Source of the DNA: a bacterium
GTDB lineage: Bacteria; Krumholzibacteriota; Krumholzibacteria; LZORAL124-64-63
Assembly (NCBI GenBank): GCA_016873405.1
Contig: VGXH01000070.1
Span: 1-8,164 of the forward strand
Length of the DNA stretch: 8,164 nt
Reading direction: 5' to 3'
In this document: positions 2,346-7,159 of the stretch, piece by piece
Layout: the number at the start of each line of letters is the position of its first letter
How positions within the stretch are numbered: the first letter of the stretch is position 1
Notes under the pieces: model-generated
What the model saw: only the letters and a program-made list of their open reading frames with translations
The model's database searches: none
Told to the model about the DNA's origin: nothing
Position numbers and translations under genes: made by a program

Positions 2346-3152
2346 ATGGATCAGAACGCAGCCAAAGGGAACGACCACCGCCGTACGGGGCCGGGCCAGT
2401 TGGACCTGAGCCTGGCCAACCTGAGCCTGGCCAACCTGAGCCTGACCAACCTGAGCCTGGTCGACCTGAGCCATCCGATCGTCACCGGCATGCCGCAGTG
2501 GCCGGGCGACGCGCAGGCGCTGCGCATCGTCCGGCTGCGCGATCACGGCGACGGGGGCTTGCGGTCGAGCCGTCTCGAGCTGGGCTGCCATGTCGGCACG
2601 CACGTGGACGCTCCCGGTCATTTCCTGGCGGGCGCCCCGGGCGTGGACGGGCTGACGCCGGAGCGTTTCTGCGGAGCGGCGATGGTCGTGCGCCCGCCGC
2701 GGACCGCGGGCGCCGCCGTGGCGCCGGGCCCTCTGGGCGCGGACGCGCTGGACGGCGTGGACCTGGCGGGCGTCGACTTCGTCCTGTTCGACACGGGCTG
2801 GGCGCGCCACTGGGGACAACCCGCGTACTATGCGGACTGGCCCTGGCTCTCGGCGCCGCTGGCGGCCGAATTGGCGGCCGCCGGGCTCAAGGGAGTGGGG
2901 CTGGACACCCCGAGCATCGACGACCGGACCGGCCGCCGCGCGCACGACCTGTTCGCCGCGGCCGGCATGGTGAACCTGGAGAACCTGGCCCACCTCGATC
3001 GCCTGCCACCGCGCGGTTTCCTGCTCGTGGCGCTGCCGTTGCCCCTGGCCGGGGCCGAGGCGTCGCCGGTGCGCGCGGTGGCCCTGCTCGAGCGGGAGCG
3101 CCTGCCCGGGGCGGGCGGAAGCGGAGATTGCCTCGATGGCCAAGTCGCCTGA
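2346..3152 (+). CDS. Cyclase-family protein (kynurenine formamidase-like metal hydrolase)
   Basis: A 268-residue cytoplasmic protein of the cyclase family (PF04199), which includes bacterial kynurenine formamidase KynB. The core begins at VDLSHPI (39-45). The metal-binding motif HVGTHVDAPGHF (82-93) supplies H82, H86 and D88, with H92 as probable catalytic base. H200 and E212 (HDLF...VNLEN) keep the 12-residue spacing of the remaining KynB ligands. The strand VGLDTPSID (184-192) is also typical. All expected active-site residues are present, so it should be active. The substrate is uncertain: no other tryptophan-degradation gene is in the window, and the family hydrolyses varied amides and lactones. 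The N-terminus is unusual: four LSL(A/T/V)(N/D)-type pentapeptides encoded by a 15-bp tandem repeat lead straight into the first core strand. The start ATG has a strong GGAGG (2336-2340) five bases upstream. The gene overlaps the pseudouridine synthase gene by 17 bases. Confidence 0.85.
   Translation: MDQNAAKGNDHRRTGPGQLDLSLANLSLANLSLTNLSLVDLSHPIVTGMPQWPGDAQALRIVRLRDHGDGGLRSSRLELGCHVGTHVDAPGHFLAGAPGVDGLTPERFCGAAMVVRPPRTAGAAVAPGPLGADALDGVDLAGVDFVLFDTGWARHWGQPAYYADWPWLSAPLAAELAAAGLKGVGLDTPSIDDRTGRRAHDLFAAAGMVNLENLAHLDRLPPRGFLLVALPLPLAGAEASPVRAVALLERERLPGAGGSGDCLDGQVA
2403..2472 (+). repeat. 15-bp tandem repeat encoding pentapeptides
   Basis: Four full units and a partial fifth of a 15-bp repeat, (G/A)ACCTGAGCCTGGCC, begin at 2403, 2418, 2433, 2448 and 2463. 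They encode (D/N)LSL(A/T/V) in frame at the N-terminus of the cyclase. The last unit merges with the conserved VDLSHP strand, so the repeat appears to have grown out of the native first strand. Units differ by one or two bases, so the array is not brand new. The A-N-L-x-x periodicity matches the pentapeptide-repeat consensus A(D/N)Lxx, though about four units make barely one coil of such a fold. Confidence 0.9.
3123..3126 (+). promoter_or_regulatory. Ribosome binding site inside the cyclase gene
   Basis: GGAG lies nine bases before the ATG at 3136, within the 3' end of the cyclase gene. It supports the upstream start of the pseudouridine synthase, including its repeat-coded N-terminus, over the later ATG at 3289, and suggests translational coupling of the two genes. 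Confidence 0.5.
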
Positions 3153-4062
3153 CAAGACCGCGGACAAGACCGCGGACAAGACAGCGGACAAGACAGCGGA
3201 CAGGACAGCGGACAAGTCGCCGGACAAGTCGCCCCCCCGGGCATCCCGCGGCGCTCCCGCCCGCCAGCCATGGCGGCCGGATCGTCCGATGGGGCTGTCG
3301 CGCGCCCTCATGAAGGCGGGCTACGGCACGCGGCGCTGGGCCGACGCGGCCGTCAGCGCCGGCCGCGTGCGCGTCGGCGCCGACGTCGTGACCGACCCCC
3401 GGCGCATGATCGCCGCGGACGCCGCCGTGTTCCTGGACGACGCGCCGCTGATCAAGGTCGAGCGCGTCTACTACGCGTTCCACAAGCCCCTGCGCGTGGT
3501 CTGCCGCCAGGAGGACGGACCTGGTCGTCGCCTGGTGGAGGACTTCCTGCCGGACGAGGTGATCGGCTTGCGCACGGCCGGGCGCCTGGACGCGCGCACC
3601 TCGGGGCTGCTCCTGATCTCCAATGACGGCGCCTGGATCACCCGCGTCACGGGAGCCGCCGGCTGCGAGCACGAATACAAGGTGCAGGTCGAAGGGGAGG
3701 TCAGCGACCTCCAGCTGACGGTGATCGACGCGGGGATCGTGCTGCCGGGCCTCGGCACGTTCCGGCCGGTGGCGGTCAAGGTGCTCTCGCGCGAGCGCGA
3801 CCGCACGATGCTGAGCCTCACCCTGCGCGGGGGGCAGGCGCGGCAGATGCGCCGGATGCTCGCCACCCTGCGGCACAAGGTGCTGATGGTCCGCCGCGAG
3901 CGCCTGGGCGGCGTGAGCCTCGGCGACCTGGCGCCCGGCGGGCTGCGGCCGCTCTCGCCGCCGGAGGTGGCGGCGTTCGCGGCGCCGGCGCTTGGCCGCC
4001 CGCCGGGAGCGACCCCTGCCCCCGCCGGCGGGGCGGGGCACCGCGGCGCGCGGGGGCGCTGA
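3136..4062 (+). CDS. RsuA/RluB-family rRNA pseudouridine synthase
   Basis: A 308-residue protein that isomerises a uridine in ribosomal RNA to pseudouridine. Residues about 53-105 form an S4 RNA-binding domain (SRALMKAGYGTRRWADAAVS, then GRVRVG and VVTDP). The catalytic domain follows: YYAFHKP (112-118), then the signature AGRLDARTSGLLLISNDG (148-165) with catalytic D152, EYKVQVEG (180-187), and the C-terminal RGGQARQMRRML (231-242) and LGGVSLGDLAPGGLRPL (257-273), typical of the RsuA/RluB/RluE/RluF branch. Which rRNA site it modifies cannot be read from the sequence. Residues 4-31 are a lysine-rich repeat of (T/S)(A/P)D(K/R) units. The catalytic core would also be made from an in-frame ATG at 3289 (M52), so the true N-terminus is uncertain; I chose 3136 because of the upstream GGAG and the overlap with the cyclase gene. 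Residues 283-308 are a low-complexity Gly/Pro/Ala tail. Confidence 0.9.
   Translation: MAKSPDKTADKTADKTADKTADRTADKSPDKSPPRASRGAPARQPWRPDRPMGLSRALMKAGYGTRRWADAAVSAGRVRVGADVVTDPRRMIAADAAVFLDDAPLIKVERVYYAFHKPLRVVCRQEDGPGRRLVEDFLPDEVIGLRTAGRLDARTSGLLLISNDGAWITRVTGAAGCEHEYKVQVEGEVSDLQLTVIDAGIVLPGLGTFRPVAVKVLSRERDRTMLSLTLRGGQARQMRRMLATLRHKVLMVRRERLGGVSLGDLAPGGLRPLSPPEVAAFAAPALGRPPGATPAPAGGAGHRGARGR
3139..3234 (+). repeat. 12-bp tandem repeat encoding a (TADK)n tail
   Basis: Seven 12-bp units of the form GACAAGACMGCG run from 3151 to 3234, with a related partial unit at 3139-3150. They encode SPDK-TADK-TADK-TADK-TADR-TADK-SPDK in frame in the pseudouridine synthase. Unit variants occur in blocks: two with ACCGCG, three with ACAGCG (one of these carrying an A-to-G change), then two with TCGCC. 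This suggests stepwise duplication. The stop codon of the upstream cyclase gene (3150-3152) sits at the junction with the first full unit. Because the unit is a multiple of three, copy changes alter length but not frame. Confidence 0.92.
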
Positions 4063-4321: not shown

Positions 4322-7159
4322 ATGAGTCTTCCGCACGGACCGCGCCACGCGCAGAGCGGGTCCCGGGCCAAGCTGGCGACGGCGGTCGCCGTCGCCGCGC
4401 TCGCTCTGTGCCTGGTCCCGGCCACCGGCCGGGCCCAGGACGCGGACACCTGCCAGATGTGCCACGACGACCGCAGCCTGACCAGGAACGAGGGCGGCCG
4501 GGTCAAGTCCCTCTATCTGGATCTCGGGGTCTACGACCGCTCGGTGCACGGGCGCGAGGGCATCGGCTGCGTGGACTGCCACCAGTCGCTGGCGGGGGTG
4601 GAGGACTGGCCGCACGCGGACGAACTGCCGGACGTCGACTGCGGCACCTGCCACGACGACGTGGCGGCCGAGTACGCCGGCAGCCTGCATGGCGTGGGCG
4701 TCAGGCAGGGCGTGCCGATCGCTCCGCGCTGCTGGACGTGCCACGGCGCGCACGACATCATGCCGCCCGCAGATCCCGCCTCGAAGGTCAATCGCTTCAA
4801 CATCCCGATCATGTGCGGGCGCTGTCACAAGGAGGGCGACGCCATCCGCGAGTACGCGGAGGTGTCGCAGGACAGCATCCTCGTGCACTACTCGTTCTCG
4901 ATCCACGGCGAGGGACTCTACAAGCGGGGGCTGACGAACTCGGCGGTGTGCTCGGACTGCCACACCGCGCACAACGTCCGCAACCACAAGGATCCCAAGA
5001 GCAGCATCCACCGCGACAACATCGCGGGCATGTGCCAGACGTGCCACGGCATGATCGCCAAGGTGCACGAGAAGGTCGTCGAGGGCCGGCTCTGGGAGAA
5101 GGAGCCGACCAAGGTCCCCGCCTGCGTCGAGTGCCACGAGCCCCATGAGATCCGCCGCGTCTTCTACGACGAGGGCATGGCCGACAGCGAGTGCCTGCGG
5201 TGCCACGGCCGGCAGGACCTGACCGGCACGACGCCGGCGAACGCCGGCCGGTCGCTGTACGTCGCCCACGGCCGACTGGCCGGCTCGGCGCACGCGAAGA
5301 CGGCGTGCATCCAGTGCCACACCGGCGCCACGCCGAGCCACGCGCGGCCCTGCGACACCGTGCCCGACCGCGTCGACTGCTCGATCTGCCACGCGGAGGT
5401 CGTCGAGACCTACAAGGCCAGCATACACGGCAAGCTGGGCGCCCAGGGGGATCGGGACGTTCCGGACTGCCTGGTCTGCCACGGGCGGCACGACATCCTG
5501 AAGAAGACGAACCCGGACTCGCCGACCTTCGTGCGCAACATCCCGGACATGTGCGGCAAGTGCCACGACGAGGGCGGCGTCGCCGACGAGCGCTACCAGG
5601 GCACCGAGAAGAGCATGGTGGCCAACTACAAGGAGAGCACGCACGGGCGCGCCCTTCAGAAGAGCGGCCTGGTCGTGACCGCCACCTGCGTCGATTGCCA
5701 CACCGCGCACGCGATCATGCCCAGCGCCGATCCCGCCTCCTCGGTCCACCGCTCGAAGGTCGACGTGACCTGCGGCCAGTGCCACGAGGGCATCGACCGC
5801 GAGTTCCGCCAGAGCATCCACTTCACGGGCGAGGCGAAGGACGGGCACCGGCTGCCCATGTGCAACGACTGCCACTCCTCGCACCGGATCGCGCGGACGG
5901 ACGCGGAGGGTTTCCGCCTGCGGATCGTGGACCAGTGCGGCACCTGCCACGAGCACGTCACCGAGAGCTACTTCGAGACCTACCACGGCAAGGTCTTCGC
6001 GCTGGGCTACACCGAGACCGCCAGTTGCGCCGACTGCCACGGCCAGCACAACATCCAGAAGCCCGATCATCCGGGTTCGATGCTCTCGCGGGACAACATC
6101 GTGGCGACCTGCGCCACGTGTCATCCCGGCGCGCACCGCCAGTTCGCCGGCTACCTGACGCACGCCACGCACCACGACAAGACGAAGTACCCCGTCATCC
6201 ACTACACGTGGCTCTTCATGACCACGCTGCTGGTGGGCACCTTCACCGTTTTCGGCATCCACACGCTGCTCTGGCTGCCGCGCAGCTTCCAGGCGCTGCG
6301 GCACAGCCGCCAACTGCGGAAGCAGGCCGCCGGGCAGAAGCAGTTCCGGCGCTTCAACCGCCTCAACCGCATGCTGCACATCCTGGTCATCGTCAGCTTC
6401 CTGACGCTGGCCGTCACCGGCATGACGCTGAAGTTCTCATACCTGCCCTGGGCGCAGACCCTGGCCAAGGCCCTGGGCGGCTTCCAGTCGGCCGGCACCC
6501 TGCACCGCCTGGGCGCGATCCTGACGTTCTTCTACTTCACGCGGCACGTCTACGACCTGCACTGCCGGCGGAAGCAGTCGGGCAAGAGCTGGCGCGAGTT
6601 CGTGTTCGGGCCGGAAGGCATGTTCCCGAACCGGCGCGACGGCCAGGAGTTCGTCGGCACGCTGAAGTGGTTCCTCGGCCGCGGCGCGCGCCCGGAGTAC
6701 GGCCGCTGGACGTACTGGGAGAAGTTCGACTACTTCGCCGTGTTCTGGGGCGTGGCGATGATCGGCTTCAGCGGCCTGGTCCTGTGGTTCCCCGAGCTGT
6801 TCACGCGGGTGCTGCCGGGCTGGTTCATCAACGTGGCGCAGATCATCCACTCGGACGAGGCGCTGCTGGCCACCGGCTTCATCTTCACGATCCACTTCTT
6901 CAACACGCACTTCCGTCCGGACCGGTTCCCGATGGACCCCGTGATCTTCACCGGCCGCATGACGCTGGAGGAGTTCAGGGAGGACCGCCCGCGCGAGTAC
7001 GAGCAACTCGTGCGCGAGGGCCGGCTCGAGGAGCACATGGTCGACCCGCTGCCGGAGGGCTTCGTCAAGGCGCTCAAGACGTTCGGCTTCGTGGCGCTGA
7101 CGATCGGCCTGGGGCTCGTGGTGCTGATCATCTGGGCGGTGCTGTTCGGGTATCGGTAG
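4322..7159 (+). CDS. CbcL-like 19-haem cytochrome c / cytochrome b quinone oxidoreductase
   Basis: A 945-residue inner-membrane protein. Residues 1-38 are a signal peptide (hydrophobic 18-35, cleavage near A38). Nineteen CxxCH haem c sites follow, first Cys at 44, 83, 107, 137, 165, 210, 238, 268, 291, 329, 353, 383, 411, 456, 484, 514, 539, 569 and 597. Many are of the form CxxCHxxH with a preceding HG, as in paired-CxxCH/cytochrome c3-type domains. Residues 626-945 form a cytochrome b domain of FdnI/HydC type with about six helices (628-652, 685-703, 727-746, 803-823, 845-862, 921-942). Positive loops fit a periplasmic haem domain. Likely haem b ligands are H686, H728, H843 and H858, by analogy with FdnI. 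The layout is that of Geobacter CbcL, which moves electrons from menaquinol to periplasmic carriers in metal or extracellular respiration. Direction and acceptor here are inferred. It appears monocistronic, with no partner cytochrome nearby. Haem number is well above that of CbcL as I recall it (nine). Confidence 0.88.
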   Translation: MSLPHGPRHAQSGSRAKLATAVAVAALALCLVPATGRAQDADTCQMCHDDRSLTRNEGGRVKSLYLDLGVYDRSVHGREGIGCVDCHQSLAGVEDWPHADELPDVDCGTCHDDVAAEYAGSLHGVGVRQGVPIAPRCWTCHGAHDIMPPADPASKVNRFNIPIMCGRCHKEGDAIREYAEVSQDSILVHYSFSIHGEGLYKRGLTNSAVCSDCHTAHNVRNHKDPKSSIHRDNIAGMCQTCHGMIAKVHEKVVEGRLWEKEPTKVPACVECHEPHEIRRVFYDEGMADSECLRCHGRQDLTGTTPANAGRSLYVAHGRLAGSAHAKTACIQCHTGATPSHARPCDTVPDRVDCSICHAEVVETYKASIHGKLGAQGDRDVPDCLVCHGRHDILKKTNPDSPTFVRNIPDMCGKCHDEGGVADERYQGTEKSMVANYKESTHGRALQKSGLVVTATCVDCHTAHAIMPSADPASSVHRSKVDVTCGQCHEGIDREFRQSIHFTGEAKDGHRLPMCNDCHSSHRIARTDAEGFRLRIVDQCGTCHEHVTESYFETYHGKVFALGYTETASCADCHGQHNIQKPDHPGSMLSRDNIVATCATCHPGAHRQFAGYLTHATHHDKTKYPVIHYTWLFMTTLLVGTFTVFGIHTLLWLPRSFQALRHSRQLRKQAAGQKQFRRFNRLNRMLHILVIVSFLTLAVTGMTLKFSYLPWAQTLAKALGGFQSAGTLHRLGAILTFFYFTRHVYDLHCRRKQSGKSWREFVFGPEGMFPNRRDGQEFVGTLKWFLGRGARPEYGRWTYWEKFDYFAVFWGVAMIGFSGLVLWFPELFTRVLPGWFINVAQIIHSDEALLATGFIFTIHFFNTHFRPDRFPMDPVIFTGRMTLEEFREDRPREYEQLVREGRLEEHMVDPLPEGFVKALKTFGFVALTIGLGLVVLIIWAVLFGYR
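4451..5188 (+). repeat. First copy of an 8-haem unit (haems 1-8)
   Basis: Residues 44-289 of the cytochrome. Distances between successive haem cysteines are 39, 24, 30, 28, 45, 28 and 30, then 23 to haem 9. The second unit reproduces this series almost exactly. Shared landmarks outside the CxxCH motifs include SLY after haem 1, an S-x-H before haem 2, a SxHG before haem 4, xNIPxMCG at haem 5 and CxDCHTAH at haem 6. Confidence 0.88.
5192..5929 (+). repeat. Second copy of the 8-haem unit (haems 9-16)
   Basis: Residues 291-536. Haem cysteine distances are 38, 24, 30, 28, 45, 28 and 30, then 25 to haem 17. Haems 10-16 lie exactly 246 residues after haems 2-8, and haem 9 lies 247 after haem 1. 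A non-haem cysteine, C344, sits between haems 10 and 11 and has no partner in the first copy. Confidence 0.88.
5936..6124 (+). repeat. Partial third copy (haems 17-19)
   Basis: Residues 539-601. The distances 30 and 28 equal those of haems 3-4-5 and 11-12-13. Context agrees: ESYFETYHGK before haem 18 matches ETYKASIHGK before haem 12, and SRDNIVATCATCH at haem 19 matches the NIP-M-CG-CH endings of haems 5 and 13. It leads directly to the membrane domain. Confidence 0.75.

What the first reader, a model, noticed from the sequence alone, without database searches (positions are those of the whole stretch)
4451..6124. Internal duplication of an 8-haem unit, plus a partial third copy, in one cytochrome
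Distances between successive haem cysteines run 39, 24, 30, 28, 45, 28, 30, 23 | 38, 24, 30, 28, 45, 28, 30, 25 | 30, 28. The series repeats with a period of eight haems and an offset of 246-247 residues, and the last three haems repeat haems 3-5. Sequence landmarks between haems follow the same register. So the 19-haem domain seems built as 8 + 8 + 3, an old tandem duplication that would roughly double the length of a periplasmic haem wire. I know of no description of such a doubled unit in CbcL-like proteins.
Basis: seen in the sequence. Interest (0 to 1): 0.75.

Follow-up and report, generated by a model that had tools for sequence, protein, structure and literature searches.

The report
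Doubled eight-haem wire in membrane cytochrome
A bacterial membrane protein that moves electrons across the cell envelope carries 19 haem groups because an eight-haem block was copied in tandem long ago; the two copies then diverged, and some relatives seem to have lost one copy again by recombination.

Summary
ORF 4322-7159 (+, 945 aa) has a signal-peptide-like start, 19 CXXCH motifs at the stated spacings and an FdnI-like cytochrome b domain. Haems 1-8 (A) and 9-16 (B) are homologous in register: profile E 4e-67, against 4e-24 for the best off-register alignment. The finer repeat is a two-haem module; the 8-haem period is a block duplication on top of it. The doubled form is a large conserved family (68 of the best 80 genome loci have 19 motifs, about 15 phylum labels). 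All 16 sampled A units form one clade. Single-unit (8+3) relatives lie outside the 19-haem group in trees of the units and of cytochrome b, so the duplication is old and an 11-haem form probably came first. Six 11-motif and one 13-motif proteins look like later contractions; two are clear A/B chimeras, four rest on weaker evidence, and P0179 is unsure. His98 of A (294 of 294) corresponds to Cys344 of B (293 of 294), suggesting one His/Cys haem only in the second copy. Unit B folded alone resembles octahaem cytochromes at middling Z. CbcL homologues with 3-23 motifs are in print; no description of the doubling was found in the searched library.

The parts
4322..7159 (+). gene for a 945-aa signal peptide + 19-haem + cytochrome b protein
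   Evidence: closest listed homologue P0001, 87% identity over 96% of the query
4322..4435 (+). signal-peptide-like N-terminus, about residues 1-38
   Evidence: hydrophobic stretch read from sequence, model helix 15-30; cleavage site inferred
4451..5191 (+). octahaem unit A, haems 1-8 (residues 44-290)
   Evidence: in-register homology with unit B; one clade; His 76,98,123,144,195,217,249,275 in 294 of 294, His222 in 287
5192..5935 (+). octahaem unit B, haems 9-16 (residues 291-538)
   Evidence: His 324,369,390,441,463,521 in 294 of 294, His500 and Cys344 in 293; unit model pLDDT 88.9
5936..6124 (+). C-terminal triplet T, haems 17-19 (residues 539-601)
   Evidence: also in 8+3 relatives; matches h3-5 or h5-7 type modules
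6191..7156 (+). membrane cytochrome b domain, FdnI/b561-like, six long helices in the model
4613..4615 (+). His98, candidate distal ligand in unit A
   Evidence: His in 294 of 294
5351..5353 (+). Cys344, same position in unit B
   Evidence: Cys in 293 of 294; the exception is P0063

Best explanation
The protein is a CbcL-type quinol/quinone-multihaem cytochrome oxidoreductase whose periplasmic wire was lengthened by an in-frame tandem duplication of an octahaem block. Shown by sequence: the two blocks are homologous in register; the split is older than the spread of the family under many phylum labels; single-unit 8+3 proteins lie outside it in two independent trees; and 11- and 13-motif proteins nested among the 19-haem ones exist, two of which are clear A/B chimeras, as deletion between homologous places of the blocks would leave. 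Inferred: electrons pass between menaquinone at the cytochrome b domain, haems 17-19, unit B, unit A and a periplasmic or outer-membrane haem partner, in either direction; unit A extends the reach. Also inferred: in unit B the cysteine at the place of an invariant histidine is the distal ligand of one haem, giving a site of unusual, probably low, potential that only the doubled protein has.
For: Register and significance. Conservation: 110 of the best 120 homologues, 118 of 120 listed without a fused cytochrome b and 68 of 80 genome loci have 19 motifs. Units co-inherited without homogenisation: A-B identity 28.5% within one protein, 28.2% between proteins; A-A and B-B identities correlate 0.85, best of 200 permutations 0.04, n 294. 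Unit tree rooted on G: A one clade 100/99; A+B+six S rows 100/99, with single-unit L095, L111 and 13 G rows outside, unchanged when L111 is cut to haems 3-8. Cytochrome b tree: L095, L111, nine 9-motif CbcL-type rows and G outside the 19-haem group with its nested short forms (93; with P0179 95). Contractions: breakpoint gains 295 and 329 bits for P0140 and P0164, opposite sides in the two part trees; a clade of 19-haem rows alone is rejected, p-AU 2.3e-41. Membrane part like FdnI. A second cytochrome b-multihaem gene within 5 kb in 22 of 38 loci and an ImcH-pattern ORF in 12 of 38.
Against: No biochemistry; redox partner and direction unknown; the window has no other multihaem gene and no whole genome is held. 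The order 'single unit first' depends on rooting on G. L095 and L111 are long branches. In the h1-h5 tree A is not one clade: L043_A falls on the B side, and A and G mix. Breakpoint test: 10 of 13 G rows also give an A-to-B break with p 0.004 or less (gains 70-133; all 13: 39-133), and 4 of 32 leave-one-out controls have p below 0.02 (gains 22-29), so the 57-102 bit gains of P0179, P0187, P0215 and P0221 are not decisive; they rest mainly on the h2 interval, and in the h1-h5 tree these four do not join A. P0179 is basal to the 19-haem group in the cytochrome b trees and may be an early single-unit form. Octahaem matches have middling Z, and by sequence NrfB, MtrA and NrfA score better than HAO. 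Cys ligation rests on conservation only.
Confidence: 0.82

Rival explanations
1. The 8-haem period arose by stepwise addition of similar two-haem modules under spacing constraint, not by one block duplication.
For: Two-haem modules are real repeats: the off-register alignment still gives E 3.9e-24; relatives with 21 and 23 motifs carry extra pairs near the N-terminus.
Against: The in-register match is 43 orders of magnitude stronger; the 45-residue gap, the 24 and 38-39 gaps and the ligand positions all recur at lag 8.
Confidence: 0.05
2. 19-haem proteins arose several times by independent duplication of 11-haem proteins.
For: Unduplicated 8+3 proteins exist outside the A/B split.
Against: All 16 sampled A units form one clade (100/99), B units share an invariant Cys, and A-B identity is no higher within a protein.
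Confidence: 0.04
3. The single-unit proteins, G included, are all contractions of a 19-haem ancestor, so the root lies inside A/B.
For: G rows are A-like at h2 and B-like at h7 and mix with A in the h1-h5 tree; nested 11-motif forms show that contraction happens.
Against: G is about equally far from A and B in most intervals, and L095, L111, G and 9-motif rows all lie outside the 19-haem group in the cytochrome b tree.
Confidence: 0.12
4. It is not a wire from quinol but a haem store, or an enzyme with a catalytic site at the Cys-bearing haem.
For: Resemblance of the units to HAO, nitrite and sulfite reductase cores; one unusual ligand position in B.
Against: All 19 motifs are CXXCH with enough conserved candidate ligands, so no open haem is evident; fused or adjacent FdnI-like cytochrome b and neighbouring quinol-cytochrome genes.
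Confidence: 0.1
5. Cys344 is structural or buried, and one haem of unit B has another ligand or none.
For: Ligation cannot be seen in a haem-free model; P0063 lacks the Cys and has a His in the same interval; A has a ninth near-invariant His222 (287 of 294), so the count of eight ligands is not unique.
Against: It takes the place of an invariant His, and no other Cys outside the motifs is above 85% conserved in the haem domain.
Confidence: 0.35

Closest known systems
CbcL / MtrH / MtoC family of quinol oxidases or quinone reductases
   Same: N-terminal CXXCH domain plus C-terminal HydC/FdnI-like cytochrome b with mostly six helices; homologues with 3-23 motifs in 15 phyla reported (PMC6295460, abstract and passages); triplet plus cytochrome b 44-49% identical to nearly all of the 9-motif proteins found here, one 50%
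   Different: CbcL of Geobacter has nine haems, all bis-His (PMC9129911, passages); 21 of 25 parsed relatives of one phylum have 9 motifs spaced near 23,25,23,24,28,31,43,28, without the 8-haem spacing pattern
Octahaem cytochromes c (HAO, hydrazine dehydrogenase, octahaem nitrite reductase)
   Different: no open haem evident, all CXXCH; tandem and membrane-anchored; Z middling; sequence match weak (A profile E 0.0018, B profile E 0.64 for 1fgj)
MtrA, decahaem cytochrome proposed to come from pentahaem duplication
   Same: internal duplication of a haem wire, proposed by the authors (PMC7198977, passages)
   Different: 10 haems, part of an outer-membrane complex, not 8+8+3 on a cytochrome b
Neighbouring 11/13-motif cytochrome b relative (G)
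   Same: 8+3 haems, e.g. spacing 38,20,29,28,43,28,30,29,42,28, plus cytochrome b
   Different: single unit; mostly 29-36% identical to the window's triplet plus cytochrome b, one partial match 26%

Membership tests
CbcL/MtrH/MtoC in the broad sense | CXXCH-rich N-terminal part plus HydC/FdnI-like cytochrome b with about six helices | tested here: met
   19 CXXCH; FdnI-like domain; long model helices 624-669, 680-704, 721-753, 798-822, 834-864, 912-941
CbcL in the narrow sense (Geobacter type) | nine haem motifs | tested here: not met
   19 motifs; 9-motif relatives have other spacings
CbcL in the narrow sense (Geobacter type) | all c haems bis-His | tested here: inconclusive
   one matching ligand position is Cys in 293 of 294; ligation not observed
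Octahaem cytochrome c (HAO-type) | eight-haem core fold | tested here: inconclusive
Octahaem cytochrome c (HAO-type) | catalytic haem with an open or special site | tested here: inconclusive
   all motifs CXXCH, candidate ligands for all haems; no structure with haem
DmsE family decahaem cytochrome (TIGR03508) | curated score cut-off 192.2 bits | tested here: not met
   88.4 bits, best stretch residues 70-244
Quinol-cytochrome oxidoreductase activity | quinol-dependent haem reduction | not testable with these tools
   needs protein

The most novel reading that the evidence does not exclude
After duplication the second octahaem unit gained a His/Cys-ligated haem that acts as a low-potential gate in the middle of a 19-haem wire. 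The 19-haem proteins are then a separate, widespread class of quinol-cytochrome oxidoreductase whose length and gating are tuned by gain and repeated recombinational loss of whole haem units.
Probability: 0.4. Interest if true: 0.78.

Novelty: new variant of a known kind. Interest (0 to 1): 0.62.

Why it matters
Multihaem wires are thought to evolve by module duplication, but families that show the unduplicated state, the duplicated state and later contraction products side by side are useful and, to my knowledge (recalled), uncommon. Here natural 11-, 13- and 19-motif relatives on similar membrane anchors would let the effect of wire length on electron transfer be tested. A near-invariant His-to-Cys change confined to one copy gives a precise prediction for a special haem. 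The family occurs under about 15 phylum labels, nearly all from metagenome-assembled or uncultured records (titles).

Tried and rejected
Chance spacing match: rejected. Recent duplication or concerted evolution: rejected, A-B identity is the same within and between proteins. Assembly artefact: rejected, the architecture recurs in hundreds of homologues. Independent duplications: disfavoured. Reading all 11-motif proteins as ancestors: rejected for those nested among 19-haem proteins, open for P0179, favoured for L095 and L111. A direct superposition of A on B was not made, because no coordinates were available; both were compared with the same PDB families. Which haem Cys344 or His98 would bind was not settled. 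Solved chain 28pb_A, the best sequence match to h1-h5 of both units, was not followed up. Rfam found nothing in the window at gathering scores.

Literature: the listings show no title or abstract start that describes this protein. The three papers and the six (two are in both) were not opened. Passages only were seen of PMC6295460, PMC12977616, PMC9129911, PMC10553843, PMC7198977 and PMC5566968. 'duplicat', 'repeat' and 'tandem' do not occur in the main text of PMC6295460; its supplementary tables could not be read, so 19-motif members may be listed there.

Rows dropped before counts: of 80 loci, 12 did not show 19 motifs (L014, L017, L026, L056 short ORFs at contig ends, L025 not parsed; L034 with 18; L035, L041, L045, L071, L077 with 21; L065 with 23), and L059, L064 and L075 failed the spacing filter, so 65 loci, 228 database proteins and the window make the 294. 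P0127 and P0135 were parsed as 11-motif but start inside haem 8 of a longer protein and were left out of the trees. Unit trees used 16 representatives of the 294, chosen by word overlap; the cytochrome b trees used 31 chosen by hand. Most of the 120 proteins look like contig-edge fragments and were not used. G rows are the 13 ORFs with 11 motifs, final spacings 42,28 and a membrane tail in the 80 loci; the 12 with 13 motifs were used only in the ligand check. In one search the unit taken from L111 began with what is probably an inserted pair of motifs (L111 also has a decayed second motif); one search repeated the tree with its haems 3-8 only, with the same main result.
Full report

The duplication. 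Spacings are exactly as reported. Lag-8 agreement of 8 of 10 intervals is reached in 246 of 200,000 shuffles. Sequence is far stronger: 19.5% identity outside the motif C, C and H at offset 246 against a mean of 6.3%, s.d. 1.8, and profile E 4.1e-67 in register. The next-best profile alignment, mostly shifted by two haems, has E 3.9e-24, so the basic brick is a two-haem paired module and a block of four bricks was duplicated. The C-terminal triplet is second-best by ungapped offset against haems 3-5, but profiles match it to haems 3-5 and 5-7 of A almost equally and to 13-15 of B more than 11-13. Single-unit relatives also have 8 + 3, so the triplet is older than the duplication.

Distribution. 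Of the best 120 listed homologues, 110 have 19 motifs, 5 have 21, 3 have 18, 1 has 16 and 1 has 32 (4291 passed E 1e-10 among the 7996 scored). A search with an 11/13-motif profile listed 120 proteins, 119 of them 649-741 aa and P0241 822 aa, 118 with 19 motifs and 2 with 21, none with the cytochrome b motif I looked for. In L005, L011 and L013 the cytochrome b is a separate ORF directly downstream.

History. In 294 proteins A-A identity averages 51.1%, B-B 47.7%, A-B 28.5% within and 28.2% between proteins; A-A and B-B identities correlate 0.85 over pairs (best of 200 permutations 0.04). So the copies diverged before the family spread and have been inherited together since, without homogenisation; horizontal transfer is likely in part (inference). 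In the unit tree, rooted on G, the 16 A rows are a clade (100/99), A + B + six S rows are a clade (100/99), and L095, L111 and 13 G units lie outside (same with L111 cut to haems 3-8). In a separate cytochrome b tree L095, L111, nine 9-motif CbcL-type rows and G lie outside the 19-haem group with its nested short forms (93; with P0179 95). L095 (11 motifs) and L111 (12 motifs, an insertion and a decayed motif by inspection) are the best candidates for the unduplicated state; both are long branches. Holding L111 together with the 19-haem group is not rejected (p-AU 0.379).

Contractions. Six complete 11-motif proteins and one 13-motif protein with fused cytochrome b are among the 120. For P0140 and P0164, column scores switch from A-like to B-like after haem 6, with gains of 295 and 329 bits; the h1-h5 tree puts them on the A side (P0164 sister to L018_A, 98) and the h5-h8 tree on the B side (100). 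For P0179, P0187, P0215 and P0221 the switch is after haem 2-3 with 57-102 bits; 32 leave-one-out controls give at most 29 (4 of them p below 0.02), but 13 G rows give 39-133 (10 of 13 with p 0.004 or less), so this signal alone does not prove chimerism. In unit trees these four fall on the B side, P0187 as sister of L001_B (100/96). In the tree of cytochrome b alone, P0164 falls among Acidobacteria, P0215/P0221 beside Omnitrophota, P0187 beside L001/L002, P0140 and the 13-motif P0168 near them; a clade of only the 31 19-haem rows is rejected (p-AU 2.3e-41). P0179 is basal to that group. The simplest reading is repeated loss of about one unit by deletion between the copies. P0168 fits a jump from haem 5 of A to haem 11 of B (19 - 6 = 13), by inspection only.

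Ligands. Among 294 proteins the histidines outside the motifs that never vary are 76, 98, 123, 144, 195, 217, 249, 275 in A; 324, 369, 390, 441, 463, 521 in B; 555, 576, 614, 617 after haem 17. Nearly invariant are His500 (293), His618 (291) and His222 of A (287). Residue 344 of B, at the place of His98, is Cys in 293; Arg342 is invariant. The exception P0063 has a His in that interval. All 32 single-unit or partner sequences checked (6 S, 13 G, P0168, 12 thirteen-motif partners) have His and no Cys in this interval. Eight always-present His for eight haems in A, against seven His plus one Cys in B, make a His/Cys haem likely but not shown. In Geobacter CbcL the nine haems were found bis-His (PMC9129911, passages). 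That His/Cys haems tend to have low potentials is recalled.

Setting. Around the gene the window has a DUF503 protein, a cyclase/arylformamidase-like protein, a pseudouridine synthase, an MXAN_6640-type metalloprotease and a weakly GDSL-like protein, and no other frame with more than two CXXCH. Elsewhere, of 38 loci with at least 4 kb on both sides, 22 have a second cytochrome b-multihaem gene within 5 kb and 12 have an ORF with motif spacings 49,~110,~117; Pfam calls that ORF NapC/NirT in the two examples tested, and its length and layout recall ImcH as described in PMC6295460 (inference; the CX3CH motif was not tested). L009 also has Rieske and cytochrome b/b6 genes beside another 11-motif gene. 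This supports a role in quinone-linked electron export or import.

Literature. Zhong and Shi (PMC6295460; abstract and passages; author names from its contributions line and recall) report 138 CbcL/MtoC/MtrH homologues, 3-23 motifs, 15 phyla, 416-1034 aa. MtrA was proposed to come from a gene duplication (PMC7198977, passages). PMC12977616 discusses gene-level duplication in Geobacter cytochromes (passages). Listings show no description of an 8+8+3 CbcL-like protein; most subscription papers, preprints and supplements were not covered.

Verdict. It is a new variant of a known kind: an octahaem tandem duplication in the CbcL-type family, with likely contraction products and a copy-specific ligand change.

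Noticed in passing
window 2404-2472 and 3151-3228: Short tandem repeats of 15 nt (4.6 copies) and 12 nt (6.5 copies) near the 5' ends of the cyclase-like and pseudouridine synthase genes.
   Followed up: no
L001, L009, L030, L057, L063 and others, beside the 19-haem gene: A second, single-unit 11/13-motif cytochrome b relative lies nearby; within 5 kb in 22 of 38 loci with enough flank.
   Followed up: partly
L009:12809-17315: NapC-like 6-motif gene, Rieske gene, cytochrome b/b6 gene and 11-motif gene in a row after the 19-haem gene.
   Followed up: partly
L005:9938-12868, L011:9881-12874, L013:5011-7950: The 19-haem part and the cytochrome b are separate adjacent genes; 120 listed ~670-aa 19/21-motif proteins lack the cytochrome b motif.
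   Followed up: partly
P0083, P0084, P0098, P0109, P0118, P0302, P0321, L035, L041, L045, L071, L077 (21 motifs), L065 (23): Extra pairs of motifs near the N-terminus, in the early part of unit A.
   Followed up: partly
P0090, 1636 aa: A homologue with 32 CXXCH motifs, apparently a 19-haem-like part joined to another multihaem part.
   Followed up: no
PDB chain 28pb_A: Best PDB sequence match to haems 1-5 of both units (E 9.5e-12 and 7.6e-12), called only 'Cytochrome c'.
   Followed up: no
L111 (genome G107): A single-unit relative in which one motif reads CGDRH, apparently a decayed haem site, beside an inserted pair of motifs.
   Followed up: partly
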